Source: a virus
DNA length: 62,622 bases
Direction: 5' to 3' (one strand)
Virus record (IMG/VR): IMGVR_UViG_3300043395_001957
Span: 1-62,622 of that record
Shown here: positions 1 to 62,622 of the stretch, in pieces
How the letters are laid out: every line of letters begins with the position of its first letter
Numbering within the stretch: the first letter of the stretch is position 1
Notes under the pieces: model-generated
The model's database searches: none
Told to the model about the DNA's origin: nothing
What the model saw: the letters and a program-made list of their open reading frames with translations, nothing else
Position numbers and translations under genes: made by a program

Positions 1-34
1 GTTCAGTTTCGCCTGCTCTTACATTTACTGGCAT
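1..34 (-). CDS. Partial: first codons of the MPVN small protein
   Basis: The start codon (34-32) and first eleven codons, reading MPVNVRAGETE, of the small protein found whole at 31362-31694 and 62240-62539. The gene runs off the window. On the circular reading it continues into 62505 and is the same gene as 62240-62539. Confidence 0.9.
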   Translation of the reverse strand, partial: MPVNVRAGETE

Positions 35-117
35 TAGTTATCTACTTTATATGTTTTATTATTAAAACGAACTTTATATACTGTATTAAAGTCCAATGTT
101 CTCCAATCTCCATCTAA
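1..117. repeat. Terminal direct repeat, left copy
   Basis: Bases 1-117 are identical to 62506-62622, so the window overlaps itself at its ends. Identity with the internal copy (31661 onward) runs 126 bases and stops at base 127. This looks like the overlap of a circular assembly rather than a virion end, because the repeat lies inside coding sequence and there is no cos- or pac-like landmark. Confidence 0.95.
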
Positions 118-1830: not shown

Positions 1831-3951
1831 TTATCCACCAGTAAAGGTAGCTGCTCTGCTAGTTCTTCTATCTAAAGCCTGTTGTGAACTAACCTCTCCA
1901 CTTACTACATATGCTTTCAATGGTGCTCTTGCTACAGATATTGTTTCAGCAATTTGTGTAGTTGGATTCATACCACCTTGTGTTTGTATTTGTGGTGCTG
2001 CTGCTCCTGCTACTCTCGGTGCTGCAATTGATGGTGCAGATGAGGCACTTCCACCACCTCCACCTTGCACACCAGCTTGTGCAGCTGCTTTATTAATTTC
2101 AGATATTGATTTAACTGCTCCAGCTACTGATGCTGCAATAGATAAACCTGCTGATACGGTATTGATTGCTACCCACGGCATACCAAATGTTAATGGTGAT
2201 GCTGCTACTGCTTTAGCGTTAGCGATACCTGTTGATGCGATAATCTGTCCAATTGATGCTGCCTGTTGTATAATTACAGCAGCGATTGCTAATGCTTTAT
2301 TCTTTCCTGCTACCTGTCCTAACACATTTCCGAATTGTTGGAATAGGCCTAAGTAAGCCATATTTATTTCATGCTTAGCTTGTGTTGCTGCTTTTTCAGT
2401 TGCAATCTCTTGGTCAGTTATAGCTTTTCTAGCATCAGCATATTTCTTACGAATTTCTGTTTTGTTAAACTCTGTTAATTCTGTATTAGCTAATTCAGTT
2501 GCTTCCTGCTCTGCAAGGATACTTCTTTGTTCTGCTAAACGAGCTAAATCCTGCTCAAAATCAAATTCAACTAATTGATTTTGTCTATCTAAATCTTCTA
2601 ATTTAGCTTGTAACCCAGTAAGTATAATACCTCTTTCTTCTTCTTGCTGTTTTTTAAGTTCTTCTTTTTTCTTCTCATCAATCTCTTTTTGTTTAGCTGA
2701 ATCTTCTTCGGCAAACTTAGTTCTCATTGTTGTGAGTTCTGCCTGTCTACCTGCTTCTAATAATGCGGTATCTTGATTATATTTTACAGCAGTTGCAACT
2801 AATGATGAATACTTCTGATTGATTTCATATTCAGTTCTTTCTCTTTCAGTTAAAGTTGCTTTAAACGCATCTTCTTCACCTTTACGGATTTCAGCTAATT
2901 CACTCTCTCTTAATCTTCTTTGTTCCTCAATTTCTTTTTCTTTCTCTTGCTGATTTTTTTCTCTTTTAGCCTTTGCTCTATCAGCTGCTTCTTTAGCTGC
3001 TGCCTCTTCTTCTTTACGCTCTTCAGCTCTAGCATTATAGCCAGTTGCCAAATAATCAGCGTATGCATCTTTTGTAGCCTGCTGTCTCTTATCTAAATTA
3101 TCCTGAAGTTTCTTAAATGTTTCAGCATCTACTTTACCTAAGTTCTCATTATATGTTTTTACTGCTTCTTGCTCTGCAGCAAATGCAGCTTGATAATCTG
3201 CATAAGATTGGTCGATATTATATTTACGAATTTCAGCTTCAGATTTACCTTGCGCTTTCATTTGTGCAAGTGTAACTTTTCTTCTATTCTCTGCTGATTT
3301 TTGGTTTAAATCTAATAAAGCCTGTTGTGATTCTAATGCGGCATTTGTTTTATCAATTGCTCTTTGTAATTCCTTTTCACCCGTTGCAGTTTTATACAAC
3401 TCCGTAGCCATTTCAGATAAAGCAGATACTGCAAAACCGATAGCAACAACGATAGCACCAATACCTGTAGCGGTTAATGCTGCTGCAAATGCTCTAGCAC
3501 CAACTGCAGCCTGTCCTTCTGCTATACCAATTGCTGTAAATGATTTTGCTAAGAATCCGTTTATTACGGTATATACTTTTGTTACACCTGTAAGTTCACC
3601 AATACCCTTTGCAGTATCAACTATATCATTACCTAACTCTACAAATGATGCTTGAATGTTAGATATCTTAATACCACTAAATTGTTTTAAAGTTGCAATT
3701 GTACCACCAACTTGATTTCCAATAGCACCAATAGGACCTGGTAGTTTACCCAATACATCAGCGAAGTTACCCGCACCTGCTCTTGCCCCTACTAAAGAGT
3801 CGTTAACATCATCAATCTGTCTTTGTAGATTAATAAACTCCTGAGAACCTACCGCAGTTTCTTTCAACTGCTTTTTTAATTCTCTAAGTTGTGCTATTGA
3901 TGGTTCAATGTTGGTTTGAATATCAACTTCTACTTCAATTTTTTCTGCCAT
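1831..3951 (-). CDS. Tail tape measure protein (A)
   Basis: A 706-residue protein with the usual tape-measure layout. A helical N-terminus (LKKQLKETAVGSQEFINLQRQID) is followed by Gly/Ala-rich hydrophobic stretches around 65-180 (GATATGIGAIVVAIGFAVSAL-like). A long charged coiled coil spans about 190-520 with many KKEEL/QEEE runs, then come another hydrophobic part about 530-615 and a Ser/Ala/Gln-rich tail. Tape measures set tail length during assembly; at the usual ratio near 1.5 angstrom per residue the tail would be about 100 nm, which is inference. The start overlaps the end of the 69-residue gene upstream by 17 bases. Confidence 0.9.
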   Translation of the reverse strand: MAEKIEVEVDIQTNIEPSIAQLRELKKQLKETAVGSQEFINLQRQIDDVNDSLVGARAGAGNFADVLGKLPGPIGAIGNQVGGTIATLKQFSGIKISNIQASFVELGNDIVDTAKGIGELTGVTKVYTVINGFLAKSFTAIGIAEGQAAVGARAFAAALTATGIGAIVVAIGFAVSALSEMATELYKTATGEKELQRAIDKTNAALESQQALLDLNQKSAENRRKVTLAQMKAQGKSEAEIRKYNIDQSYADYQAAFAAEQEAVKTYNENLGKVDAETFKKLQDNLDKRQQATKDAYADYLATGYNARAEERKEEEAAAKEAADRAKAKREKNQQEKEKEIEEQRRLRESELAEIRKGEEDAFKATLTERERTEYEINQKYSSLVATAVKYNQDTALLEAGRQAELTTMRTKFAEEDSAKQKEIDEKKKEELKKQQEEERGIILTGLQAKLEDLDRQNQLVEFDFEQDLARLAEQRSILAEQEATELANTELTEFNKTEIRKKYADARKAITDQEIATEKAATQAKHEINMAYLGLFQQFGNVLGQVAGKNKALAIAAVIIQQAASIGQIIASTGIANAKAVAASPLTFGMPWVAINTVSAGLSIAASVAGAVKSISEINKAAAQAGVQGGGGGSASSAPSIAAPRVAGAAAPQIQTQGGMNPTTQIAETISVARAPLKAYVVSGEVSSQQALDRRTSRAATFTGG

Positions 3952-12993: not shown

Positions 12994-13506
12994 TTATAAT
13001 TGAATTCCACCAAAGTACTGATTTGTTTGGTCTGGATAAATCTGTGTTTGGTTTCCAACTGATTGTAAGTATTGAGGAATTTCGTTTGAGTAAGATATCA
13101 AATAGTTTTGTAATCTCAACGCATAGTAGTCAGCATTGTTCTGAGCTTTCGCTAGAAGGTAATCTATCTCCGCTTTCGATGGAGCGACGCCTTGCTCACT
13201 CTGTTGCTTCACAGCACCATTTGATTTGAACTGAATAGAACTGAAAGGAATGTATTCCACACAACTATACCAAATAAGAGTTGGTTTAACGTGGTCTGTC
13301 ATCAAATCAGCATAATACCCTGTAAATGGAGTTTGAGTTTCTATTTGTAAACTTAAATAATCATACAATACAGTACCTAAAAGGTTTTTTAGATACTTTA
13401 CCTGTGCAGTTTGTATAAATGGTAATAAAGCATCTGCATCAATAGCACCCTGTAATGGGGTATTCTTAATGATATCGTTTCTCGTTATAAATAATGCGGT
13501 TGCCAT
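12994..13506 (-). CDS. Head-tail adaptor (connector) candidate (A)
   Basis: A 170-residue, mainly helical protein directly downstream of the portal gene, where gp6-like adaptors lie in siphoviruses. Conserved with B: LLPFI-TAQ-KYLKNLLGTVLYDYL, CVEYIPFSSIQFKSNGAVKQQSEQGVAP-KAEIDYL and QIYPDQTNQYF. I recognise it as the type common in Bacteroidota phages next to portals, without a proven activity. Confidence 0.65.
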   Translation of the reverse strand: MATALFITRNDIIKNTPLQGAIDADALLPFIQTAQVKYLKNLLGTVLYDYLSLQIETQTPFTGYYADLMTDHVKPTLIWYSCVEYIPFSSIQFKSNGAVKQQSEQGVAPSKAEIDYLLAKAQNNADYYALRLQNYLISYSNEIPQYLQSVGNQTQIYPDQTNQYFGGIQL

Positions 13507-18495: not shown

Positions 18496-21400
18496 TTAAA
18501 CTATTATGTATAATGTATTTGGGTCTTTAGTTACTATTGCTAAATATTCAGCAGAACTCAATGAAATTATTTTTGTTACTGCTGCCGTACCTGTAAATGT
18601 ATCACCAACGTTTGTTACAACACTGCCACTTGCACTTCCAGATAAGAAGTTCATAGAGCCTGTAAATGATGAATCTCCAGCTACGTTTAAACTTCCGCTT
18701 AAGAAAGCGTTAGAGCCCGAATCAATTAATAATCCGTTTCTTCTGCTTGAAGTTGAAGTACCTGTACCTACAACGAACACAGTGTTGTTTGATAATACAT
18801 CGGTATTAAATCTACCAACGATTACAGTTCCTCTATCTGCTGCCTGTGTTGCTGCAGTTTGTAATGCTGATGAGCCTGTTACGTTTAAGCCATGTCCGAT
18901 TAAAGCAACACTATTTAAGTTTGAGTTATCTCCTAATAAGTTTGCTGATGCAGAGTGTGCTGAACCTAACATTACATTATTTGCAAATTGTCTAGGTGTA
19001 GTCAATGTAGTATTACTACCACTTGCAACTAATGAATAGTTAGAACCAACAAATAAACCATTTGCAACACTTACAAAATTACCAGCTGCAGTTGAGCCAC
19101 TATATAAGTTATTTATAGTTAAATTACCTTGTAAGTTATTACTAGCAAATCCAATAGATGAACTATCCATATTAAGGACTAGTGCTCCGCCTAAGTTATT
19201 CAGCTGAATATTAGGTGCGTTTACTAATGTAGTTTTATTTGCAACTGCTTGTATTGTTGCATTACTAAAGTTATTTGTAAAGTTTAATCCTGCTGATGCT
19301 GAAACAAAAGATGTTGCTGCTGCAGAACCAAAGTTTATATTACCACCATTTATAGTATTATGTGATATAGTATATGCTGATGAACTAACAGGTGTTCTCA
19401 TAAAGATAGTACCTGCTCCATTAATTATATTTGCGTTCATTACAGGCGATATACTCAACGAGCCAGTCAATTGTGGAACGGAGCCTGAAGTAATAAAAAT
19501 ATTATTACCACCACCAACGTATCTATTGAATGTAGCAGTTGCTGCACCTGGTGATTGGAATATGTTTGAACTACCACTAACAATAGTTGCAGTAGTTAAT
19601 GCGTTGTTTTTAAATATTAAGTTTGAATTACTTCCACTTACTGATGCGGTTACATATGCTAATGATGATGTGAATCCATCAGCAATCATCCATACGTTTC
19701 TACCATAGAATGATGCGGTTGTATTTACTTTAAATCCACCAAATGCTGATGGAGCGATTTCAACTGCACCACTTTCAGCAAGAGTTACTTTGTTATCTCT
19801 CCAATCCATTTGAATTGGTTTAGCATTATCCGATTCTCTTGTAATCAATAATACTGGCTCAAAAGGATTTGATTTAAGTGTATAGTTAGAGCCTGTTGTA
19901 GAACTTAATCCAAATGTAATAGCTGAGCCCGAATAGTTTTGTACGCCTGATGTGTTTTGGAATACAATAGGAGTAAAAAATGTAGTTAGTCCATTAATGA
20001 ATGTATTACTACCATCAAATAAGTTTGAGCCTGTTGTTGCGAATCTAGCATTTAATAATTGTTGTGATGCAGTAAATGCATTAAATGTATCTGCTTTAGC
20101 AAATGATGAAGATGGTTGGTTTTTCCATAAAGAAGAACTTGCTTCATATACCAATACATCACCTTGCTGTTCTGATACTATTCTAACGTTATGTAATTCG
20201 TTTAATTCCCATCCATTACTAACATTAACAAATATTGAACCATTGTTTGATTGTACTCTTAGTACTTCACCAAGGGTTACTATGTTTAAAGGTGCTTGTG
20301 GTGCTACGTTTGTAAATTGACCTGAAGAAGATAGGTAAATTAAATCACCTGCATTCATTCCGGCAGTATTCACACCAATTACTTTACCAATTACAGTAAT
20401 ATCAGCGTAATCACCACTAACCGCAGTGTTTGCTAATATACCTAGTGTATTAGATGAATTTGCTTCACTATCATAAGATGCGGTATTGAATCTCGGATTA
20501 TCTCCTGTTGCTCCACTAATTCTTACAACAGTACCAATAGGTAGAGTTGATTGGTTAGCGTTTATAGCTGAAACAATTACATCTCTAGCGAATGATGCGG
20601 TTGCTGCATTTTCAGCGTATGATGCACTAACTGCACTACCTGTTGCTACAGTTACACTAAATGTACTTGCATCTCCTTTTGTAAATGTGATTGTTGCGTT
20701 ATTAGCAGATGCAGTTACTATTGTTGATGCGGTAATAGAAGAACTAACAAATCCTAAATTAGTTATTTGCTGTGAACCTGAAATAGTTCCTGCTGGCAAT
20801 ATAGAGCCTGTGATATCAGGTATATTTACTGCGAATGTAGAGTTATCACCTTTTGTGAATGTAAGGTTACGAGTTCCATTATTAAATGATGCAGTTATCA
20901 ATGATGATGCAGTAATTGCTGCAGTTACCCAACTTCCACTTTGTGCTTCAATTGAGTTTAATCTTTGATTTGCTGATTGTGTGAATGCGTTAGTACCTGC
21001 TATCGAAGCAGTAAACGATTCTATTGAATCTACTCTACCATCTATTGATTGTGTGAATGCGTTAAATTCAGTTTGTGATGCAAAGTTTGTATCTAATGAA
21101 GTACTGAATGCTTCTAATGCATCTACTCTACTATCAAATGATGCACTAGCATTTATGTATGATTGTGTAAATGCGTTGAAAGAAGAAGTATTTAATTTTG
21201 TATCAATACTATTTTGCAATGCCCCTGTTGCTGCTGCTAATTCAGTTTGAGTTACATATGTTACATCTAATGATGCAGTAAATGATTCTAATGAATTCAA
21301 TCTTTGATTTTGTGCATTATCTACCGCTGCTACTGAAGCAGAGTTTGCGTATGATGATGTTGCTGCTTCTAAAGCATCTAAACGAGCATCTGCTGATGCA

Positions 21401-21630
21401 CTAAATAACTCTAAGTTATTAATTGCTTCTGCTGATGCAGATGGGTCTAATTCAAGTATTCTCTGATTAAACGAAGCACTATCAGCATTATATGATATCT
21501 CATCAACTAATGAGTCTATCATATCTGTATTGAATCCCCTTAATCGTGATGGAGTAATCTGTCCATTATTATTATTAGGAAATTGCGTATTGTTTTCTAC
21601 CTTTAAGGCCTGTTTTGAAATTTCTGCCAT
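18496..21630 (-). CDS. Long repetitive tail fibre (A)
   Basis: A 1044-residue protein very rich in Ser, Ala, Thr and Asn. The N-terminal ~55 residues (MAEISKQALKVENNTQFPNNNNGQITP) are shared with 51962-55096 and probably anchor it. Residues about 60-240 hold coiled-coil-like repeats of the QRLNSLESFTAS / NAFTQS type. Further on are beta-repeat stretches, and a region about 690-1000 related to B (NRYVGGGNNIF, GTGTSTSSRRNGLLIDSGSN). The extreme end, ADPNTLYIIV-like (KDPNTLYIIV), is unit-specific. It looks like a trimeric fibre of beta-helical and coiled-coil segments. Equal length in both units despite different middles is notable. Confidence 0.75.
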   Translation of the reverse strand: MAEISKQALKVENNTQFPNNNNGQITPSRLRGFNTDMIDSLVDEISYNADSASFNQRILELDPSASAEAINNLELFSASADARLDALEAATSSYANSASVAAVDNAQNQRLNSLESFTASLDVTYVTQTELAAATGALQNSIDTKLNTSSFNAFTQSYINASASFDSRVDALEAFSTSLDTNFASQTEFNAFTQSIDGRVDSIESFTASIAGTNAFTQSANQRLNSIEAQSGSWVTAAITASSLITASFNNGTRNLTFTKGDNSTFAVNIPDITGSILPAGTISGSQQITNLGFVSSSITASTIVTASANNATITFTKGDASTFSVTVATGSAVSASYAENAATASFARDVIVSAINANQSTLPIGTVVRISGATGDNPRFNTASYDSEANSSNTLGILANTAVSGDYADITVIGKVIGVNTAGMNAGDLIYLSSSGQFTNVAPQAPLNIVTLGEVLRVQSNNGSIFVNVSNGWELNELHNVRIVSEQQGDVLVYEASSSLWKNQPSSSFAKADTFNAFTASQQLLNARFATTGSNLFDGSNTFINGLTTFFTPIVFQNTSGVQNYSGSAITFGLSSTTGSNYTLKSNPFEPVLLITRESDNAKPIQMDWRDNKVTLAESGAVEIAPSAFGGFKVNTTASFYGRNVWMIADGFTSSLAYVTASVSGSNSNLIFKNNALTTATIVSGSSNIFQSPGAATATFNRYVGGGNNIFITSGSVPQLTGSLSISPVMNANIINGAGTIFMRTPVSSSAYTISHNTINGGNINFGSAAATSFVSASAGLNFTNNFSNATIQAVANKTTLVNAPNIQLNNLGGALVLNMDSSSIGFASNNLQGNLTINNLYSGSTAAGNFVSVANGLFVGSNYSLVASGSNTTLTTPRQFANNVMLGSAHSASANLLGDNSNLNSVALIGHGLNVTGSSALQTAATQAADRGTVIVGRFNTDVLSNNTVFVVGTGTSTSSRRNGLLIDSGSNAFLSGSLNVAGDSSFTGSMNFLSGSASGSVVTNVGDTFTGTAAVTKIISLSSAEYLAIVTKDPNTLYIIV

Positions 21631-21969: not shown

Positions 21970-22233
21970 TTAACCGCTTATCTTTTTCATTGCTTCTTTG
22001 TGTAATAAAGTTTCTAACTGAGCTTTATCAGATTTATACGCTAGATACAATAAACACTTCTCAAGCGGTTCTTTTACTACTTCATCGATTTCCTTAATCT
22101 TTCCATCGGCGAGTTGAATGATAGTTGAATAAGCTCTCCACTTCTTTGAAAAATTGACCTCATGTTGTGAGGAAGCTCCACTTCCTTCAAAGAGTTCAGC
22201 ATATCTTTCAGTAAGTCCGTTTGTAAATGAACA
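21970..22233 (-). CDS. -1 frame extension of the frameshift protein (A)
   Basis: Open frame reached by a -1 slip on the T9 run (22241-22233). It continues CSFTNGLTERYAEL and ends KAQLETLLHKEAMKKISG. It has no ATG of its own at the right place (only a TTG upstream of the run) and is better conserved with B than the zero-frame tail is (NFSKKWRAYSTII-LADG, PLEKCLLYL, LHKEAMK). It should exist only as the C-terminus of a 255-residue fusion. Confidence 0.7.
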   Translation of the reverse strand, partial: CSFTNGLTERYAELFEGSGASSQHEVNFSKKWRAYSTIIQLADGKIKEIDEVVKEPLEKCLLYLAYKSDKAQLETLLHKEAMKKISG

Positions 22234-22736
22234 AAAAAAAACAGCGCTCCCCAATGAACTTCCATATTAACACCTAACCATTTAGTTTCCTCTATATCTC
22301 CATCATATGGACGGATGGAATACATCTTACCTTTCTTATTTGTAACTGGTCTATATAATATGGACATTATCTTTGCCCAATTCTTATCGATTTGTATAGT
22401 ATCGTATTGAGTAATATCAGCATAAGCACCATAAGCCATCTTACTTAAATTAGGTTCGAATCCATATTCAGTTCCATCTATTGTAACAAATGGTTGTAAT
22501 TCAATAGTTTCAGGTGATATAAATTCAGCTAATCTGCTTTTTAACTTTAAGTATGATTCAGATGATAACCCCTTTATATATTCAGGTTCTAGTCCGCATA
22601 GGTGATGTAACATTAATGCAACTTGTGCTTCTTCCTCATCTCTATATGCTTCTAAATCTGCTTGCAATGCAAGATATTGTTTAAGAGTTACATCTTTCCA
22701 CGTTGTTGGTATCTCTAATGTTAATGTTTGTTTCAT
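22077..22736 (-). CDS. Frameshift-site protein, zero-frame product (tail assembly chaperone candidate, A)
   Basis: A 219-residue protein starting in an ATGA overlap with the coiled-coil peptide gene. Conserved blocks are PTTWKDVTLKQYLALQAD, LMLHHLCGL, IKGLSSESYLKLKSRLAEFISP, NLSKMAYGAYADITQYDTI, IMSILYRPVTNKKG-MYSIRPYDGDI and HWGALFFFV. At residues 166-168 the mRNA holds CUG-U9-GUU, a slippery run. Slipping back one base fuses residues 1-168 to the 87-residue -1 frame, giving 255 residues. Siphovirus tail assembly chaperones (lambda G/GT type) use such a shift; the position after the terminase instead of before the tape measure is unusual, so the role is tentative. Confidence 0.7.
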   Translation of the reverse strand: MKQTLTLEIPTTWKDVTLKQYLALQADLEAYRDEEEAQVALMLHHLCGLEPEYIKGLSSESYLKLKSRLAEFISPETIELQPFVTIDGTEYGFEPNLSKMAYGAYADITQYDTIQIDKNWAKIMSILYRPVTNKKGKMYSIRPYDGDIEETKWLGVNMEVHWGALFFFVHLQTDLLKDMLNSLKEVELPHNMRSIFQRSGELIQLSFNSPMERLRKSMK

Positions 22737-22906
22737 GCTGTGTATGTATTTAATATTTGTTTTAATTGTTTGTTTTTAGCCATTTCGTTTTTCAGCATTG
22801 CATCCATAGCAATGATTTTGGCTTTCAACTCTTCGTTTTGTTGTTGAGTTTGTGCTACATATAATAGTAGTTCTCTTATTTCTTCTGATGTGTATATTTG
22901 ACTCAT
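22733..22906 (-). CDS. 57-residue coiled-coil peptide between terminase and frameshift gene (A)
   Basis: Short gene joined to both neighbours by ATGA overlaps (22903-22906 and 22733-22736). The product reads MSQIYTSEEIRELLLYVAQT and continues as a heptad-like helix (NEELKAKIIAMDAMLKNEMAKNKQLKQIL in parts). Unit B encodes the same peptide at 56200-56373 with an identical IIAMDAMLKNEMAKNKQLK core. The overlaps and conservation make it a real gene. Role unknown; perhaps a partner of terminase or of the frameshift protein. Confidence 0.85.
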   Translation of the reverse strand: MSQIYTSEEIRELLLYVAQTQQQNEELKAKIIAMDAMLKNEMAKNKQLKQILNTYTA

Positions 22907-24057
22907 CGTATTGATATTGAATATTGTCCTTTGTTAACTGCTTTTTGTGATAGTTTCATCATACAACAATATCGTGCTGCATCGATTAAGTGGTCTAAGC
23001 CCCCTTCTGGTGTATCCGTAACATAACCATATTTGTCAGTTGCATATTGATATGAGTATAATTCATTGATTAGGTTTTGGGATTTATTATGCACAAATAT
23101 CTTATAGTTGTTCATTACATTAATACCAAACTTAATACTATCCTTTCCTTTTGTTACAGGCTTTATATTAAAACCCATACGATATAATTCCTCAATTAGC
23201 CTTGGTTCTGCTGAATCAGCCCATATCTCTTCACTCTTTGTAATATCTAACTTCCTTAACCTATCAGCAATATCAGATGTTACTAATCCCTTTTCGTATA
23301 AATGCTCTTCTAAATAGATTCTATCGCCTGTCCTATATACTGCTACTAATGCAGTTGGGTCATTACTAAAACCAAAGTCTATTCCGAATCCAACGAAATC
23401 AGATTCAAAATGTCCGCATGTTTCAAATTGGAATATGGCTTTATCATTGGGTGCGTATTCACCTTTACCATATATCAACCATTTCTTTTGGTTTGTGTGT
23501 TGTAAATCTTCAATTGCTTTGACTACTGATTCTTCTAAGAATGGGTTATCCTTATATGTTGTTACAAATCTTTCGCAATCCTTCATTTGTCTTACCCAAT
23601 GATATGGTGATACCGTTGGATTCAATGCCATTATAATTTGACCTGTTGTTCTAATCATTAATTGGAATGCTGATTCTTCATCTATTTCAGAACACTCTTC
23701 TAAGAATAGTATAGATGATTTAATACCTCTAAGCTTTTCAGCATCATCAGTAGATACAAACTGAATGATTGAATCACCATATCGCCATATTCTGTCCGTT
23801 ATGTTGAAATCATCTTCTCTAAAGATATTCAGGCTTTTAAGTATATCGCTGAAATCCTTCATTACAGTCCTTTTAAGCGATGGAATTGTTTTCCTTACTA
23901 TTGTTATGGTCTGCGTACTTTCAATCGCTTTAACGATAAGATATTGAAGAATAGCGTATGTCTTACCGCTACGTGTTCCACCAATGTGTTGAGTGACACG
24001 ATGTTTACTTTCTAATAGATTCTCAAATGTTACAGTAGTATTAATCTTTACTTCCAC
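22903..24057 (-). CDS. terL: Terminase large subunit (A)
   Basis: A 384-residue packaging motor. The N-terminal ATPase has Walker A GGTRSGKT at 26-33 and a Walker B-like LFLEE at about 117-121. The C-terminal nuclease shows GIDFGFSNDPTALVAV, WADSAEPRLIEELYRMGF and DHLIDAARY, holding the usual acidic metal ligands. The start overlaps terS by 17 bases. Compared with unit B the nuclease half is much better conserved than the ATPase half, a sign of mosaic descent. Confidence 0.92.
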   Translation of the reverse strand: MEVKINTTVTFENLLESKHRVTQHIGGTRSGKTYAILQYLIVKAIESTQTITIVRKTIPSLKRTVMKDFSDILKSLNIFREDDFNITDRIWRYGDSIIQFVSTDDAEKLRGIKSSILFLEECSEIDEESAFQLMIRTTGQIIMALNPTVSPYHWVRQMKDCERFVTTYKDNPFLEESVVKAIEDLQHTNQKKWLIYGKGEYAPNDKAIFQFETCGHFESDFVGFGIDFGFSNDPTALVAVYRTGDRIYLEEHLYEKGLVTSDIADRLRKLDITKSEEIWADSAEPRLIEELYRMGFNIKPVTKGKDSIKFGINVMNNYKIFVHNKSQNLINELYSYQYATDKYGYVTDTPEGGLDHLIDAARYCCMMKLSQKAVNKGQYSISIR

Positions 24058-33217: not shown

Positions 33218-35341
33218 TTATCCACCACTTAGCGTAGCAGCAACATTTGTACGGCGGTCTAAAGCCTGTTGTGAACTAACTTGTTGTGATACAACATAGG
33301 TTTGAATAGGCCTTTGTTGAGACATTGCTATACTTTGTGCGATTTGTGATGATGGATTTGCTCCTGTTGTTGTTTGTATTTGAGGTGTTGCCATTGCTGC
33401 AGGTGCTCCACCATACGATGGAGGTGGTGCAGATGGAGATGCAGCTGCGCCTGATGATGATGGATTATCAGTATTAGTAGAATTAATTTGTTGTATTGAT
33501 TTAACTGCTGATGCAACAGTTGATGCAATACTTAAACCTGCTGATATCGTGTTTATTGCGACCCATGGCATACCACCTGTTAATGGAGATGCCGCTACTG
33601 ATTTAGCATTTGCTATTGCAGTATTTGCAATAATCTGCCCAATTGCTGCTGCCTGTTGTATAATTACACCAGCGATTGCTATACCTTTTGATTTACCTGC
33701 AACTTGTTGTAATAGAGAACCGAATTGTGAGAACAATCCTAAATAAGCCATATTGATTTCGTGCTTAGCTGCTGCTGCCGCTTTTTCGGTTGCTATTTCA
33801 CCATCGGTAATTTTACGTCTTTCATCTGCAAATTTCTTACGGATTTCAGTACGCTGAAATTCTGTTAATTCAGTATTTTCTAATTCTATTCTTTCTTGCT
33901 CTGCAAGTATTTCTCTTTGTTGTTTGAATCTCTCTAAATCCTGCTCAAAATCAAAATCAACCAATTGATTTTGTCTATCTAAATCTTCTAAACGAGTTTC
34001 TAAACCTACAAGTAAGATACCTCTTTCTTCTTCTTGTCTTTTAAGAAGTTCTTCTTTCTTCTTATCATCAATTTCTTTTTGTTTATCGGCATCTTCTTTT
34101 GCAAACTTATCTTTCATTGAAGTAAGTTCAGCCTGTCTACCTGCTTCTAATAATGCAGTATCTTGATTGTATTTTGTAGCAGTTGCAACTAATGCTGAAT
34201 ACTTTTGGTTTATTTCATATTCAGTTCTTTCTCTTTCGGTTAAAGTTGCTTTAAATGCATCTTCTTCACCTTTACGAATCTCACCTAATTCACTCTCTCT
34301 TAATCTTCTTTGTTCTTCAATCTCTTTTTCTTTTTGCTCTCTTTTCTTATCAGCAGCTTGTTGATTCTTATCAGCTATTTCTTTATTTTTAGCTGCTTCT
34401 TCTTTAATCTCTTCTGCTCTAGCATTATAACCAGTTTCTTGATAAGTAGCATAAGCATCTTTTGTAGCCTGTTGTCTCTTGTCTAAATTATCTGATACTT
34501 TCTTAAATGCTTCTGCATCTAACTTACCTAAACTTTCATTATACAATTTTACAGCCTCTTGCTCTGCAGCAAATGCAGCTTGATAATCTGCGTATGATTG
34601 GTCAATATTATATTTACGGATTTCGGCTTCAGATTTACCTTGCGCTTTCATTTGAGCAATGGTAACCTTTCTTCTATTCTCTGCTGATTTTTGGTTTAAA
34701 TCTAATAAAGCCTGTTGTGATTCTAATGCGGCATTTGTTTTATCAATTGCTCTTTGTAATTCTTTTTCACCTGTTGCAGTTTTATATAACTCCGTAGCCA
34801 TTTCAGATAAAGCACTTACTGCTAAACCGATAGCAACAACGATAGCACCAACACCAGTAGCGGTTAATGCTGCTGCGAATGCTCTAGCACCAACTGCAGC
34901 CTGTCCTTCTGCTATACCAACTGCTGTAAATGATTTGGCTAAAAATCCATTTATAACTGAATATACTTTGGTTACACCCGTAAGTTCACCAATACCTTTA
35001 GCAATATCAGTAATATCATTACCCAATTCAACGAATGAGGCTTGGATATTATTTAATTTAAGACCTGAAAATTGTTTTAATGTTGCAATTGTACCACCAA
35101 CTTGTCCGCCGATAGCACCAATTGGACCAGGTAATTTACCTAATACATCAGCAAAGTTACCAGCACCTGCTCTAGCTCCTGCTAAAGAGTCCTGAATATC
35201 ATCAATCTGTCTTTGTAAGTTGATGAACTCCTGCGAACCAGCGGCAGTTTCTTTTAGCTGCTTTTTTAATTCTCTAAGCTGCGCTAACGATGGTTCAATA
35301 TTGGTTTGTATATCAACCTCTACATCAATTTTTTCTGCCAT
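33218..35341 (-). CDS. Tail tape measure protein (B)
   Basis: A 707-residue copy of the unit A tape measure, one residue longer, so tail length should be the same. Same order: helical start, hydrophobic Gly/Ala part, long charged coiled coil, second hydrophobic part, and a Ser/Pro/Gln-rich C-terminal region that is the least conserved piece (SSSGAAASPSAPPPSYGGA) before SQQALDRRT. Confidence 0.9.
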   Translation of the reverse strand: MAEKIDVEVDIQTNIEPSLAQLRELKKQLKETAAGSQEFINLQRQIDDIQDSLAGARAGAGNFADVLGKLPGPIGAIGGQVGGTIATLKQFSGLKLNNIQASFVELGNDITDIAKGIGELTGVTKVYSVINGFLAKSFTAVGIAEGQAAVGARAFAAALTATGVGAIVVAIGLAVSALSEMATELYKTATGEKELQRAIDKTNAALESQQALLDLNQKSAENRRKVTIAQMKAQGKSEAEIRKYNIDQSYADYQAAFAAEQEAVKLYNESLGKLDAEAFKKVSDNLDKRQQATKDAYATYQETGYNARAEEIKEEAAKNKEIADKNQQAADKKREQKEKEIEEQRRLRESELGEIRKGEEDAFKATLTERERTEYEINQKYSALVATATKYNQDTALLEAGRQAELTSMKDKFAKEDADKQKEIDDKKKEELLKRQEEERGILLVGLETRLEDLDRQNQLVDFDFEQDLERFKQQREILAEQERIELENTELTEFQRTEIRKKFADERRKITDGEIATEKAAAAAKHEINMAYLGLFSQFGSLLQQVAGKSKGIAIAGVIIQQAAAIGQIIANTAIANAKSVAASPLTGGMPWVAINTISAGLSIASTVASAVKSIQQINSTNTDNPSSSGAAASPSAPPPSYGGAPAAMATPQIQTTTGANPSSQIAQSIAMSQQRPIQTYVVSQQVSSQQALDRRTNVAATLSGG

Positions 35342-51961: not shown

Positions 51962-54900
51962 TTATAATGATGGATTTATAATCATATAGCCTACAATATC
52001 AGTATCACCATTACCTGTTGATTGAATTGTAAATGTTCCACTTCCTTTTGAAAGGATTGCTGGGCTATGTGCGTTTGTAAGTGTTTGTTTAGTTACTATA
52101 ATAATTGAATTTGCAGTTACTAATGAGTTAGAAACAACTGCCTGTGATGGAGATGCTCCATCAAGCGTTGCAGTTCCAACTTGTTGATTACTTCCTGTTG
52201 CAAAACGATGTTCAAATCCTTGTGCTATATTTGTACTTCCTGTAAATGCTGTGCTACCACTTACATTAAGAGTTCCCTCTACAAATGTGTTACTACCACT
52301 ATCAATTAAGAAACCAGTCTTTCTCGTAGAAGTTCCCGTACCTGTACCTACTGCAAAAACAGTTTCTGCAGTATATGCTTTTGTACCACCTAAATCATTC
52401 CATCTACCTGCGAATACTGAACCCCAATCTGCGCCTGTTGGACCAGCTACTCTACTGTTAGTACCATATACAGTTAACGATTGACCGATTAGGTTTGTAG
52501 AGTTAACATTAGTATTGTCACCATTGAAAGATGCAGATATCACATTAGAACCACCAAACATAGTACTATTTGAAATTACTCTTGGTGATGTAAATGTTGC
52601 GTTGGAGCCTGATGCGTATATTGTACTACCACCTATGAATACTCCTGAATTAATACCTAATGCAGCGTTTGTATTAACCGTTGATGGGAAGTATGAGTTA
52701 TTAACAATTAAAGTACCTTGAACAGTAGCACCATTTAAATTAATAGATGAACTATCGTAATTTAAAGTAACTGTTCCACCTATCGTATTAGCGCTCATAT
52801 TACTTGATGCAGATAGTGGAGTTTTAGCTGCTACTGCACTTATAGTACCTGCTATAATATTATTTGTAACATTAAGACCTGATACTGCTCTTTCAAAATT
52901 ATTAGCTGCGCTTGTTCCAAAAGATAAAGCAGTACTTGCACCATTCATAAGTAAGTTACTACTTACCGTATATGTTGATGAAGAAACAGGTGCTCTAAAT
53001 ATTACTCCGGCATTTGAAATGTTGTTAGCCATTGTAATTGGGAATGCTGCGGAGCCTGTTATCTGTGGTAATACGTTTGTATAAATGTTACCACTACCAC
53101 CAACATATCTATTAAATCCAGCAGTTACACCTGAAGGATTTGCGAATATATTACCACTACCACTTACGATAGTTGTTGGATTACCTGTATTTGTTTTAAA
53201 TATTAAGTTTGTGTTTGCGTTTACTTGTGATGAACTTATATGCGATAATGATGCATATGTAGGCGTTACACTTGAGTTAGTTAGTACTAATGAGCCGCTT
53301 TTACCTAATAAATAAACTTCACCTTGTCCGCTACCTACTACATCACCTATTGATTCAACACCTCTAAAGTTATTTGAGCCCGTTGTTGCGAAGTAAGAAT
53401 TAGAAACATATTGTGATGCTGTAAATGAGTTTAGTGAAGATAAATCAGTTGTTCCACCAAATGATGATGTTGCTACAGTTGTTGTTCTACCACTAGCATC
53501 TCCAACCCAAACATATCCTTGAGCTAAAGGTGCATCAAATGTTGAACTTATTTTTAAACTACCTGTAATATCTACGTTAGTATTTATTCCAGAATTAACT
53601 GAAACAGGTGTTTGAAATGTTACACCACCAACAGTACTTTGGAATTGAACCGGGTTATTTTGGAATGTTGTATTATTTCCTGCAGCACCTGCTAAAGTAA
53701 ATGTTTTAGTATTACTTACACCATCTCTACTAAATGCAATATCACCAACACCTGGTACTAATTGTATATTATAGAAATTAGAGGAGCCTGTCAAGAAACG
53801 GATATTACTTCCATCACCTATTTCCAATGCGTTTGCACTACCACCTACTCTAAATCCGTTAGATGCAGATACATATCCGCTTACAACTTGATTTCCGTTA
53901 AATGTATTACTTCCGGTTGTTGCAAAACTACCTGTATTAATTACACTACCTGTTTGGATATATGGTTGTAATGCTGATGCTATATTTTGAAAATTATCAT
54001 ATTGTGTTACACCATTATTATTAGTTGTAAGAATATATGAGCCCGTACCTAGTTGTATTGAACTACTAATCCAATCAACTACATCAGGGTAAAATGTTCC
54101 TGATTGATTTAATGCACCACTTATAGTTTGGTTTCCAACAAATGAGTTACTTCCTGTTGTTGCGAAACTACCTGTATTAATACCACTACCTGTGATTGCG
54201 TTTATTCTTGCGTCTACCGATGCCGAAAATGTAGAATCAATTGGTGATTGTCCTAACCAAGTAATTGCTGCACTACTATTTAATGTTAATCCACCACCTA
54301 TATAAAGAAAACTTCCTACATCTGTATTTCCATTTAATTTTGTAGATGTAGTCGGGTTTACAACTAAATCACCACTAATAAGTGTATTACTTGCAGTTAT
54401 TTGGTTTGATACAATTAAACTACCTGTCAATTGTAATGTGTTACTTCCTGTTGGAACATTTATTGTAACTGCTCCTGCACCAATTCCATTTCCAACTGCG
54501 TTTGTTTGTCCTAATTGGAATCCACCATCTGCAGCTAAAATTATATTATTGCTTTTAGCTAATATTTTTATGCTACCGCTACCACCATATTGACCATTAT
54601 TATTAATATTAAAATCACCATATGCGGTAAAGTTATTATTAGGTGCTTGGAACTCTACGTTAGCTTGTCCACCACCTGTTGATATAATATTCAATTGAGT
54701 GTTACCACTTGTTGTTATAGTTTGATTACCCGTAAATGTGTTACTGCCTGTTGTAGCGAAACTACCTGTATTAAATGTGCTTCCACTTACATCAGGTATG
54801 TTTACTGAAAATGTAGAAGCATCCCCTTTTGTAAATGTTAAGTTACGAGTACTATTATTAAACGATGCAGTGATTAGTGAACTTCCAGTTATTGCTGAAG

Positions 54901-55096
54901 TTACACTACCTGTTGCGTTATTTATTCTAGTGTTAAAAGATGCACTATCTGCAGTATATATGGTTTGATTCACTGTAGAATCAATCATATCTTCATTGAA
55001 TGTCCTTAATCTTACTGGCGTAATCTGACCATTATTATTATTAGGAAATTCGGTATTGTTTTCAACCTTTAAGGCCTGTTTTGATAATTCTGCCAT
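51962..55096 (-). CDS. Long repetitive tail fibre (B)
   Basis: A 1044-residue fibre of the same length as in unit A. The first ~55 residues match A. The middle differs: it lacks the QRLNSLESFTAS coiled-coil repeats and has repeated NTGSFATTGSNTFTGNQ modules (at least five). The region about 660-960 is again related to A (NRYVGGSGNIYTNVLPQITGS, GTGTGTSTRKTGFLIDSGSN). The last ~90 residues (FEHRFATGSNQQVGTATLDG...YMIINPSL) are a separate C-terminal domain. It is followed directly by the scaffold gene. Confidence 0.75.
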   Translation of the reverse strand: MAELSKQALKVENNTEFPNNNNGQITPVRLRTFNEDMIDSTVNQTIYTADSASFNTRINNATGSVTSAITGSSLITASFNNSTRNLTFTKGDASTFSVNIPDVSGSTFNTGSFATTGSNTFTGNQTITTSGNTQLNIISTGGGQANVEFQAPNNNFTAYGDFNINNNGQYGGSGSIKILAKSNNIILAADGGFQLGQTNAVGNGIGAGAVTINVPTGSNTLQLTGSLIVSNQITASNTLISGDLVVNPTTSTKLNGNTDVGSFLYIGGGLTLNSSAAITWLGQSPIDSTFSASVDARINAITGSGINTGSFATTGSNSFVGNQTISGALNQSGTFYPDVVDWISSSIQLGTGSYILTTNNNGVTQYDNFQNIASALQPYIQTGSVINTGSFATTGSNTFNGNQVVSGYVSASNGFRVGGSANALEIGDGSNIRFLTGSSNFYNIQLVPGVGDIAFSRDGVSNTKTFTLAGAAGNNTTFQNNPVQFQSTVGGVTFQTPVSVNSGINTNVDITGSLKISSTFDAPLAQGYVWVGDASGRTTTVATSSFGGTTDLSSLNSFTASQYVSNSYFATTGSNNFRGVESIGDVVGSGQGEVYLLGKSGSLVLTNSSVTPTYASLSHISSSQVNANTNLIFKTNTGNPTTIVSGSGNIFANPSGVTAGFNRYVGGSGNIYTNVLPQITGSAAFPITMANNISNAGVIFRAPVSSSTYTVSSNLLMNGASTALSFGTSAANNFERAVSGLNVTNNIIAGTISAVAAKTPLSASSNMSANTIGGTVTLNYDSSSINLNGATVQGTLIVNNSYFPSTVNTNAALGINSGVFIGGSTIYASGSNATFTSPRVISNSTMFGGSNVISASFNGDNTNVNSTNLIGQSLTVYGTNSRVAGPTGADWGSVFAGRWNDLGGTKAYTAETVFAVGTGTGTSTRKTGFLIDSGSNTFVEGTLNVSGSTAFTGSTNIAQGFEHRFATGSNQQVGTATLDGASPSQAVVSNSLVTANSIIIVTKQTLTNAHSPAILSKGSGTFTIQSTGNGDTDIVGYMIINPSL

Positions 55097-55433: not shown

Positions 55434-55700
55434 TTATTTAACACCAATGCCCTTCATCGCTTCCTTATGTAGTAAAGAATCTAATCTTGCTTTATCAGAT
55501 TTGAAGGATAGGTATAGCAAACACTTCTCTAATGGGTATTTTACTACTTCTTCAATTTTGGCAAGTTCACCATCTGCGAGCTCAATGATAGTCGAATAAG
55601 CTCTCCACTTTTTGCTAAAATTTGCCTGATGTTGTGAGGAAGGTCCATCTCCATCGTAGATTTCAGGGTATCTTTCAGTAAGTCCGTTTGTAAACGAACA
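55434..55700 (-). CDS. -1 frame extension of the frameshift protein (B)
   Basis: Open frame of 88 residues entered by a -1 slip: CSFTNGLTERYPEIYDGDG, NFSKKWRAYSTIIELADG, PLEKCLLYLSFKSDKARL, LLHKEAMKGIGVK. Closely related to the unit A extension, including 35 or so residues past the zero-frame stop. Confidence 0.7.
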   Translation of the reverse strand, partial: CSFTNGLTERYPEIYDGDGPSSQHQANFSKKWRAYSTIIELADGELAKIEEVVKYPLEKCLLYLSFKSDKARLDSLLHKEAMKGIGVK

Positions 55701-56203
55701 AAAAAAAACAGCGCTCCCCAATGTAGTTCCATATTTACATCCAACCATTTCTCTTCATCTATATCTCCATCGTATGGACGGATGGAATACATACTACCTT
55801 TCTTATTTGTAACAGGCCTGTATAGTATGGACATTATCTTTGCCCAATTCTTATCAATTGTAATTGTATCGTATTGTGTGATATCAGCGTAAGCACCATA
55901 AGCCATCTTACTTAAATTTGGTTCAAAGCCGTATTCAATCCCATCTATTGTTACGAATTTTTGCAAATCAATAGTATCAGGTGATATAAATTCTGCTAAT
56001 CTGCTTTTCAATTTTAAATAGGATTCAGATGATAATCCCTTTATGTATTCTGGGTTTAATCCACATAAGTGATGTAGCATAAGTGCAACCTGTGCTTCTT
56101 CATCATCTCTATATGCTTCCATATCTGCTTGTAATGCAAGATATTGTTTAAGAGTTACATCTTTCCATGTAGTTGGTATCTCTAATGTTAATGTTTGTTT
56201 CAT
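55544..56203 (-). CDS. Frameshift-site protein, zero-frame product (tail assembly chaperone candidate, B)
   Basis: A 219-residue copy of 22077-22736, same length. The U9 run again falls exactly after codon 165 (55708-55700), preceded by GCGCUG and followed by GUUC. A -1 slip gives a 256-residue fusion. Keeping the run while neighbouring third positions have changed argues that it is selected. Confidence 0.7.
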   Translation of the reverse strand: MKQTLTLEIPTTWKDVTLKQYLALQADMEAYRDDEEAQVALMLHHLCGLNPEYIKGLSSESYLKLKSRLAEFISPDTIDLQKFVTIDGIEYGFEPNLSKMAYGAYADITQYDTITIDKNWAKIMSILYRPVTNKKGSMYSIRPYDGDIDEEKWLDVNMELHWGALFFFVRLQTDLLKDTLKSTMEMDLPHNIRQILAKSGELIRLSLSSQMVNLPKLKK

Positions 56204-56373
56204 GCTGTATAGTTTTGTAATATGTTTTTTAATTGTTTGTTTTTAGCCATTTCGTTTTTCAGCATTGCATCCATAGCTATTATCTTTGCTCTTAACTCTT
56301 CGTTATCCTTTTGTGTTTGCTGCACATATAGGAGTAAATCTTTTATCTCTTCTGATGTATATGTTTGACTCAT
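56200..56373 (-). CDS. 57-residue coiled-coil peptide (B)
   Basis: Same peptide as 22733-22906 (MSQTYTSEEIKDLLLYVQQT start, core IIAMDAMLKNEMAKNKQLK) with ATGA overlaps on both sides. Role unknown. Confidence 0.85.
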   Translation of the reverse strand: MSQTYTSEEIKDLLLYVQQTQKDNEELRAKIIAMDAMLKNEMAKNKQLKNILQNYTA

Positions 56374-57542
56374 CGTATTGATATTGTGTAGTTTCCTGCT
56401 TTAATCTTTTTAGCATTTAATCTTTCCATACATACATAGCGGATTGCGTCAATTGCGTGGTTTGAATAATCAACGGGGATATTCTCAAAGTTTCCGTTTT
56501 TATCAACCATCCAAACATACTCTCCAAATTCCTTCACTATATTGCTGCTTCTTTTTGTCACTATTAAGCGATATTGCATCATAAGGTCAATACCTAGCTT
56601 AATCGAATCCTTTCCTTTCCTGACAGGTTTAACATTAAATCCGAGCCTATATAGCTCTTCATTCAAACGAGGTTCTGCACTATCAGCCCAAATCTCTTCT
56701 CTACCTACTTCTAATTCTCTTAATCGGTTTGCAATATCAGATGTTACCATTCCTTTCTGATATACCAATTCATCTATGAAAAGGTCTTTATCTCTTTTCC
56801 AAATCGCTACTAATGCAGTTGGGTCTACGGTAAATCCATAGTCTAATCCGAATGCAACAAACTCTGCATTCTCCGGCACTTCCTCTACTAAATTGATTGA
56901 GAAGATTGTTCCTACATTATTGCCTGGCAATCCCATACCATATATCTTATAGTATTCAGGGTTGATTTCTTTTAATCTTTCAATCTCTTCTACTAACTGC
57001 TTTTCTAAATAAGGGTTATCACGAAAGGTACTTATATAAAGGTCTGCTTCAGGGTGTGTTTGTATTTCGTTGAAGATATAGTTGTTAGTACCAAAGGATG
57101 GGTTGTATGCTATAATTGTTTTCTTACGTGTTCTGATAAACAATTGGAAATAATCTTCTTGTGATAACTCATTACACTCATCTACAAATAAGTAATCTCT
57201 TGCACTACCTTTTCTTTTTTCCGCACTATCGATGGACATAAACTCAACCATACTTCCATTATCAAATGAATAAACGTGTTCGGTTGCTGACCATCTTTCT
57301 TCTTCCCAAATTCCTAATTCTTTTAATATGCTTATCCAATCTCTCATAATAGAGACACGCATAGATGGAAATGATTTTCTTACTACTGATATTACTATGT
57401 TTGGTTCGGATAGTGCTTTAACCAATATCCATTGTAGTGCTGAGTAAGACTTACCGCTACGCGTTCCACCCTGAAGAATACAAATCCTTCTACTGCTCTC
57501 AATATCTCTATATGTCTTTGATGTGTTGATTTGCAGTTCCAT
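56370..57542 (-). CDS. terL: Terminase large subunit (B)
   Basis: A 390-residue packaging motor. Walker A GGTRSGKS at 25-32, Walker B YLFVDE at about 117-122 (a canonical DE, unlike the LFLEE of A), nuclease motifs GLDYGFTVDPTALVAI, WADSAEPRLNEELYRLGF and NHAIDAIRY. The ATPase half differs strongly from A while the nuclease half is close. Overlaps terS by 35 bases. Confidence 0.92.
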   Translation of the reverse strand: MELQINTSKTYRDIESSRRICILQGGTRSGKSYSALQWILVKALSEPNIVISVVRKSFPSMRVSIMRDWISILKELGIWEEERWSATEHVYSFDNGSMVEFMSIDSAEKRKGSARDYLFVDECNELSQEDYFQLFIRTRKKTIIAYNPSFGTNNYIFNEIQTHPEADLYISTFRDNPYLEKQLVEEIERLKEINPEYYKIYGMGLPGNNVGTIFSINLVEEVPENAEFVAFGLDYGFTVDPTALVAIWKRDKDLFIDELVYQKGMVTSDIANRLRELEVGREEIWADSAEPRLNEELYRLGFNVKPVRKGKDSIKLGIDLMMQYRLIVTKRSSNIVKEFGEYVWMVDKNGNFENIPVDYSNHAIDAIRYVCMERLNAKKIKAGNYTISIR

Positions 57543-62239: not shown

Positions 62240-62539
62240 TTATTCCTTTATAGGTACACAATTGGGAACTTCTCTACCATCTAAAATCTTTGTACCTATG
62301 GCTTCATATCCTTCCCAACAGGCATCCTCTAATCCTTCTAATAAGTTTATACCTTTCCAAGCATCTTGTCTTAATTTAGATGCTACTTTACCTTGAGTAC
62401 TCATATTGGTATCTTTTCTCCAATAGGAGTAACAGATAGCAGCTGCTTGCTCTTGTTCGTATCCACCTGATACTTCTTCTCCTATACAACGGCTTATGAA
62501 CTCTTGTTCAGTTTCGCCTGCTCTTACATTTACTGGCAT
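62240..62539 (-). CDS. MPVN small protein (B side)
   Basis: A 99-residue relative of 31362-31694. The first 14 residues are identical, AAAICYSYWRKD is kept, and the C-terminal half has DACWEGYEAIG and VPNCVPIKE. In this unit it directly precedes the membrane coiled-coil gene, with no nuclease inserted. Confidence 0.8.
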   Translation of the reverse strand: MPVNVRAGETEQEFISRCIGEEVSGGYEQEQAAAICYSYWRKDTNMSTQGKVASKLRQDAWKGINLLEGLEDACWEGYEAIGTKILDGREVPNCVPIKE

Positions 62540-62622
62540 TAGTTATCTACTTTATATGTTTTATTATTAAAACGAACTTTATATACTGTATTAAAGTCCA
62601 ATGTTCTCCAATCTCCATCTAA
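62506..62622. repeat. Terminal direct repeat, right copy
   Basis: Identical to bases 1-117. The shared stretch starts 10 bases earlier, at 62496, and is cut by the end of the window. Confidence 0.95.
62539..62622 (-). CDS. Partial: 3' end of the 110-residue protein gene
   Basis: Last 27 codons and stop of the gene found whole at 34-366; cut by the window end. The sequence is the same as 34-117. Confidence 0.9.
   Translation of the reverse strand, partial: LDGDWRTLDFNTVYKVRFNNKTYKVDN

What the first reader, a model, noticed from the sequence alone, without database searches (positions are those of the whole stretch)
22077..22241. Conserved U9 slippery site with -1 extension after the terminase (A)
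The 219-residue frame carries U9 directly after codon 165. A -1 slip reads into an 87-residue frame without its own ATG. That frame is more conserved with B than the zero-frame end is, and continues about 35 codons past the zero-frame stop. This is the lambda G/GT principle, but placed between terL and the fibre gene rather than before the tape measure.
Basis: partly seen in the sequence, partly recalled or inferred. Interest (0 to 1): 0.7.

Follow-up and report, generated by a model that had tools for sequence, protein, structure and literature searches.

The report
Phage gene read in two frames
A gene in a large family of uncultured tailed phages, next to their DNA-packaging motor gene, carries a fixed run of nine or ten T's where reading slips back one base, so that one gene makes a short and a long protein, probably the pair of helper proteins that build the phage tail.

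Summary
In both window copies (A, B) and in 185 distinct sequences of relatives from viral contigs, the gene after terL carries a T run followed by an 80-94-codon domain in the -1 frame. The run is T9 in 123, T10 in 60, T7 in 2, never T8. No relative fuses the frames, and about half have no start codon in the -1 frame. Elsewhere in ~700 kb of ORFs, T>=8 occurs once.

The overlap is doubly constrained: substitutions at -1-frame third positions are halved there (36 of 39 pairs), and the zero frame stays open ~48 codons against ~9 in a synonym-shuffled null. Sequencing error and two independent genes are both excluded as far as sequence allows.

Best reading: a G/GT-type tail assembly chaperone pair, 18-20 kb from the tape-measure gene. 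The frameshift itself is close to certain. The chaperone role rests on weak profile hits and architecture; direct comparison with P2 gpE failed.

The mechanism is open between ribosomal -1 slippage and RNA polymerase slippage. Run length is held at 9-10 while the run changed codon register at least 12 times, which leans towards polymerase slippage. One T7 clade, keeping exactly the in-frame U_UUU_UUU, suggests ribosomal slippage suffices there.

The parts
22077..22736 (-). Copy A, zero-frame ORF (219 codons), the G-like product
   Evidence: matches phrog_32199 at 4.5e-15
22233..22241 (-). Copy A, T9 slippery run (codons 166-168, TTT TTT TTT, then G)
22233..22239 (-). Copy A, in-frame heptamer U_UUU_UUU inside the T9 run
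   Evidence: an in-frame heptamer is present in 185/185 relatives, although any run of 9 or more contains one by necessity
21970..22232 (-). Copy A, remainder of the -1-frame extension with its stop (the first of its 87 codons begins on the last T, 22233): the T-like domain
   Evidence: phrog_38404 matches 50 of 73 members of the domain alignment
22080..22232 (-). Copy A, doubly coding overlap (zero frame and -1 frame)
   Evidence: synonymous suppression
55544..56203 (-). Copy B, zero-frame ORF (219 codons)
   Evidence: 85% identical to A
55700..55708 (-). Copy B, T9 slippery run
55434..55699 (-). Copy B, remainder of the -1-frame extension with its stop (the first of its 88 codons begins on the last T, 55700)
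22903..24057 (-). terL of copy A, directly upstream of the slip gene
   Evidence: PF04466 7.7e-25, phrog_2 1.3e-37; terL upstream in 110 of 113 relatives with enough upstream DNA
56370..57542 (-). terL of copy B
   Evidence: 42% identical to terL of A
18496..21630 (-). Fibre gene of copy A (neighbour), C-terminal Phage_tail_C
   Evidence: PF24243 6.5e-6
1831..3951 (-). Tape-measure-like gene of copy A, about 18 kb downstream
   Evidence: phrog_1538 4.1e-4; sequence
33218..35341 (-). Tape-measure-like gene of copy B, about 20 kb downstream
   Evidence: phrog_339 1.3e-4; 80% identical to A

Best explanation
One gene makes two proteins through a programmed -1 frame change at a fixed U9 or U10 run. 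Reading the zero frame gives the 219-residue product. In a fraction of expression events the frame moves by -1 in effect, either because a ribosome moves back one base on U_UUU_UUU or because RNA polymerase adds one U (or drops two). This gives the roughly 255-residue product with an all-helical C-terminal domain. Shown by sequence: the run, the second frame, their conservation, and selection on both frames. Inferred: that both proteins are made, and that they are the tail assembly chaperone pair (G and GT type), with the short form binding the tape-measure protein and the long form bringing in the tail tube protein. The gene lies not before the tape-measure gene but after terL. I lean slightly to RNA polymerase slippage as at least a contributor, because run length, not codon register, is what is kept.
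For: Run and -1 domain are in 185/185 distinct relatives, including the isolates P12024S/L at 30% identity. There is never a fused frame or a +1 arrangement. Substitution rate at -1-frame third positions is 0.17 in the overlap and 0.34 after the zero-frame stop, lower in the overlap in 36 of 39 pairs; -1-frame dS is 0.34 against 1.09. The zero frame stays open 48 codons on average against 8.9 in the synonym-shuffled null. Chaperone role: Phage_TAC_7 matches 6 of 14 members (best 0.0021), phrog_166 'tail protein' 7.2e-5 and 7 of 14 members, phrog_3140 'tail assembly chaperone' 0.0092. P2 gpE hits phrog_166 over the same profile stretch. No frameshift pair was seen before the tape-measure gene. 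Polymerase slippage: T9 or T10 in 183/185, T8 never; at least 12 register changes on the tree with length held; T>=8 otherwise almost absent from ORFs; no RNA structure signal around the site. Literature: Tn with n>8 is associated with transcriptional realignment (PMC3711429) and the RNA:DNA hybrid is 9-10 bp (PMC5009743).
Against: The T7 clade (L069, L147) keeps the -1 domain with a run shorter than the usual threshold for polymerase slippage, in the register that a ribosome needs. Direct profile comparison with the P2 gpE family gave probability 1.9%. All chaperone profile hits are weak and below curated cut-offs where these exist. No solved structure resembles either part. No protein or RNA data exist for any member. 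The tape-measure assignment is itself based on weak hits.
Confidence: 0.72

Rival explanations
1. Purely ribosomal -1 frameshifting on U_UUU_UUU, as in P2 E/E' and lambda G/GT; the extra T's merely raise efficiency or reflect Phe codons.
For: An in-frame heptamer is present in all 185; the T7 clade keeps exactly that heptamer in the right register; the P2 gene E site is GGT TTT TTG, a very similar context; ribosomal slippage is the established mechanism for this kind of gene (PMC5009743).
Against: It does not require 9-10 T: the register changed at least 12 times while the length did not, and T8 is absent from 185. Any run of 9 or more contains an in-frame heptamer, so its presence in 183 of the 185 carries no information. 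No downstream structure was detected and an SD-like motif is present in only 37 of 128.
Confidence: 0.4
2. Homopolymer sequencing or assembly error: the true run has one more T and the gene is one ordinary ORF.
For: Long homopolymers are error-prone in some sequencing methods (general knowledge).
Against: T9, T10 and T7 alleles across 185 sequences in three registers would all need an error of the same sign; two sequenced isolate phages agree. The zero-frame tail is itself under selection and kept open about 48 codons, which an error could not produce.
Confidence: 0.02
3. Two separate genes: the -1-frame domain is translated on its own by re-initiation or coupling.
For: Copy B has an ATG and copy A a TTG in the -1 frame upstream of the run; PHROGs and the P12024S annotation list two genes.
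Against: 97 of 185 have no ATG, GTG or TTG in the -1 frame before the domain. The conserved -1 domain begins at the run. The invariant run would be unexplained.
Confidence: 0.03
4. A real recoded gene, but not a tail chaperone: a terL-associated packaging or head protein with two C-termini.
For: The gene directly follows terL in 110 of 113 relatives; the link to known chaperones fails in a direct profile comparison.
Against: phrog_166, phrog_3140 and Phage_TAC_7 all point weakly to tail chaperones; no other frameshifted pair was seen near the tape-measure gene.
Confidence: 0.2

Closest known systems
Lambda gpG/gpGT tail assembly chaperone pair
   Same: One gene, a shared N-terminal part and a -1-frame C-terminal extension; both products expected.
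   Different: Not next to the tape-measure gene but after terL, 18-20 kb away; a bare U9/U10 run; no sequence comparison with gpG was made here.
P2 E/E+E' (Phage_TAC_7, PF10109; phrog_103, phrog_166)
   Same: -1 frameshift on a U-rich site (GGT TTT TTG in P2, GGT TTT TTT ATC in the T7 clade); weak profile links through phrog_166 and PF10109.
   Different: P2 gpE is 91 residues and lies just before the tape-measure gene T; here 219 residues with an extra beta-hairpin part. hhalign found no relation.
Programmed transcriptional realignment genes (Thermus dnaX, Shigella mxiE and spa13)
   Same: Homopolymer of nine or so as slip site; dnaX relatives also vary between 10, 9, 8 and 7 A's (PMC3711429).
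   Different: Not phage tail genes; slippage is shown there by experiment and not here.
phrog_32199 and phrog_38404 (Nonlabens phage P12024S gp38 and gp39)
   Same: These are the zero-frame part and the -1 domain of this gene.
   Different: They are listed as two separate families of unknown function; here they are joined as one recoded gene.

Membership tests
G/GT-type recoded tail chaperone | Slippery site and a long overlapping frame giving a C-terminal extension | tested here: met
   185/185 relatives
G/GT-type recoded tail chaperone | Both the short and the extended product under selection | tested here: met
   Third-position suppression in the overlap in 36/39 pairs, zero frame kept open
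G/GT-type recoded tail chaperone | Position directly upstream of the tape-measure gene | tested here: not met
   Gene follows terL; tape-measure-like gene about 18 kb (A) and 20 kb (B) away. Works like, but does not sit like, the family
G/GT-type recoded tail chaperone | Short form binds tape-measure protein, long form binds tube protein; neither in the virion | not testable with these tools
   Needs biochemistry
Phage_TAC_7 (PF10109, P2 gpE) | Sequence homology to the family | tested here: inconclusive
   6 of 14 members hit, best 0.0021; the two scores shown are 15 and 17 bits against a cut-off of 25; hhalign with nine P2-type sequences probability 1.9%
Programmed ribosomal -1 frameshift | In-frame X_XXY_YYZ heptamer | tested here: met
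   In all 185, informative only in the two T7 sequences
Programmed ribosomal -1 frameshift | Stimulator: downstream structure or upstream SD | tested here: inconclusive
   Mean folding z about 0, SD-like motif in 37 of 128; pseudoknots not tested, and U-run sites may need none
Programmed transcriptional realignment | T run longer than 8 | tested here: met
   183 of 185, window copies included; two relatives at T7 fail it
Programmed transcriptional realignment | Heterogeneous run length in RNA | not testable with these tools
   No RNA data

The most novel reading that the evidence does not exclude
A large clade of phages makes its tail chaperone pair through RNA polymerase slippage on a T9/T10 run held at the length of the polymerase's RNA:DNA hybrid, so that the product ratio is set in transcription rather than in translation; one clade has since switched to a minimal ribosomal site.
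Probability: 0.4. Interest if true: 0.7.

Novelty: new variant of a known kind. Interest (0 to 1): 0.5.

Why it matters
Recoding of the tail chaperone gene is among the best-conserved tricks of tailed phages, and is thought of as ribosomal and tied to a place just before the tape-measure gene. Here it is kept in a family of several hundred contigs (555 in one scan) with the gene elsewhere and with a run of fixed length, so gene order alone would miss it. It joins two 'unknown' families (phrog_32199 and phrog_38404) into one gene, and it points to an isolate phage (P12024S) in which polymerase and ribosome slippage can be told apart.

Tried and rejected
Sequencing error and separate-gene explanations were tested and dropped (see rivals). 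RNA stem-loops up- and downstream: no signal (mean folding z between 0.1 and 0.5). Search of 84,980 bacterial and archaeal genomes with the zero-frame profile: no relative confirmed. P2 gpE single and profile comparison: nothing. Foldseek and VIA-align against the PDB for both models, and HMM search of PDB sequences: no convincing match. BFVD gave 33 matches at E up to 1e-3, all uncharacterised or unnamed; the nearest named one is a tail assembly chaperone at E 0.036. Flavobacterium phage 6H, a weak fold hit: its candidate (gp10, chosen by its 191-residue length) lies upstream of an annotated tape-measure gene, but its -1 frame stops at once, so it was not used.

Full report
What is there. On the minus strand of the window the gene after terL (22736..22077, 219 codons) contains nine T's, 22241..22233, as codons 166-168. 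A -1 shift there enters a frame open for 87 codons, ending 35 codons past the zero-frame stop. The second phage in the window has the same arrangement (56203..55544, T9 at 55708..55700, 88 codons). A and B are 59% identical in the zero-frame tail and 74% in the -1 frame.

Relatives. Six scans of viral contigs gave 185 distinct sequences that cover the site (window copies included, duplicates removed on 300 bases of context; a few loci end before the site). Analysis used separate HMMs for the zero-frame part and the -1 domain, found in three-frame translations, so that neither a run nor a shift was required for the domains to be found; the reported run is the longest T stretch near the end of the zero-frame part. 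Every one has the -1 domain in the -1 frame. Run lengths: T9 123, T10 60, T7 2. Nothing is fused into one frame. The only isolates found in the phage collection, Nonlabens phages P12024S and P12024L, have T9 in a different codon register and were annotated as hypothetical genes, gp38 and gp39 in P12024S. gp38 is phrog_32199 and gp39 is phrog_38404, two families without function that are thus two halves of one gene.

Both frames are real. Between close relatives, the third position of the -1 frame changes at 0.17 per codon in the overlap and 0.34 after the zero-frame stop, lower in 36 of 39 pairs with each sequence used once (binomial p about 4e-8; the pairs may share tree branches, so the p-value is approximate). 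-1-frame dS is 0.34 in the overlap and 1.09 after it (pooled over 244 non-independent pairs). The zero frame stays open for 48 codons on average, against 8.9 when synonymous codons of the -1 frame are shuffled. The zero-frame end is therefore not a by-product of the -1 frame. Suppression could in principle come from RNA structure, but none was seen.

What makes the slip. In ORFs of at least 100 codons in the fetched loci, runs of T8 or more on the sense strand occur once outside this site and 116 times at it. On a tree of 120 sequences the combined state of run length and codon register changed at least 13 times and the register at least 12 times, while length stayed 9 or 10 except in one clade at T7. 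A ribosomal site would need only T7 in register. Runs of nine are a length at which bacterial RNA polymerase slips with high efficiency in vivo, and the hybrid is 9-10 bp (PMC5009743); Tn with n>8 is the recorded range for transcriptional realignment (PMC3711429). These facts favour polymerase slippage. Against it, the T7 clade keeps the minimal in-frame heptamer and the domain, so ribosomal slippage suffices at least there. PMC3711429 notes that the two mechanisms look interchangeable in dnaX. Amino acid demand for Phe could contribute, but other registers put Gly, His or Leu in the same place. The mechanism stays open.

What it does. The zero-frame product is predicted as a helical N-terminal part, beta hairpins, and a long helix across the slip site (AlphaFold2, mean pLDDT 81.7); the -1 domain is all helical (81.1). 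Weak hits point to tail assembly chaperones: PF10109, phrog_166 and phrog_3140. P2 gpE hits phrog_166 over the same stretch, but direct profile comparison with nine P2-type sequences fails. No frameshift pair was seen before the tape-measure-like gene in A or B. terL precedes the gene in 110 of 113 relatives. I take the tail chaperone role as likely (about 0.75) but inferred.

Novelty. The kind (recoded tail chaperone) is known. The placing after terL, the fixed run length with moving register, and the joining of two unnamed families are new as far as the searches went; the literature searches returned no report of transcriptional slippage in a phage tail chaperone in their listed titles and abstracts, but subscription journals are mostly not held and most listed papers were not opened.

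Noticed in passing
window 1-117 and 62506-62622; A about 1-31 kb, B about 31-62 kb: The record has a 117-bp direct terminal repeat and holds two related phage genomes head to tail (28 gene pairs alike, 34-99% identical). Phage A's slip gene is also found, 100% identical, on a separate contig (L005). The record may be an assembly chimera of two circular or permuted genomes of about 31 kb.
   Followed up: partly
window 22903-24057 and 56370-57542: terL of A and B is only 42% identical while the slip gene and the next small gene are 85-91% identical, which suggests exchange of terL by recombination beside a conserved slip gene.
   Followed up: no
window 18496-21630 and 51962-55096: The fibre genes of A and B are both 1044 codons long yet BLAST aligns only 352 residues at 47% identity; the C-terminal Phage_tail_C domain was found in A.
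   Followed up: no
window 12994-13506: The 170-residue protein near the portal gene matches DUF6712 (1e-17), also found in gp11 of Flavobacterium phage 6H.
   Followed up: no
L191 10352-10927 (Flavobacterium phage 6H gp10): The zero frame ends soon after TGT TTT TTC; the -1 frame stops at once, but a long open stretch continues in that frame further on. Possibly another recoding arrangement upstream of the tape-measure gene.
   Followed up: partly
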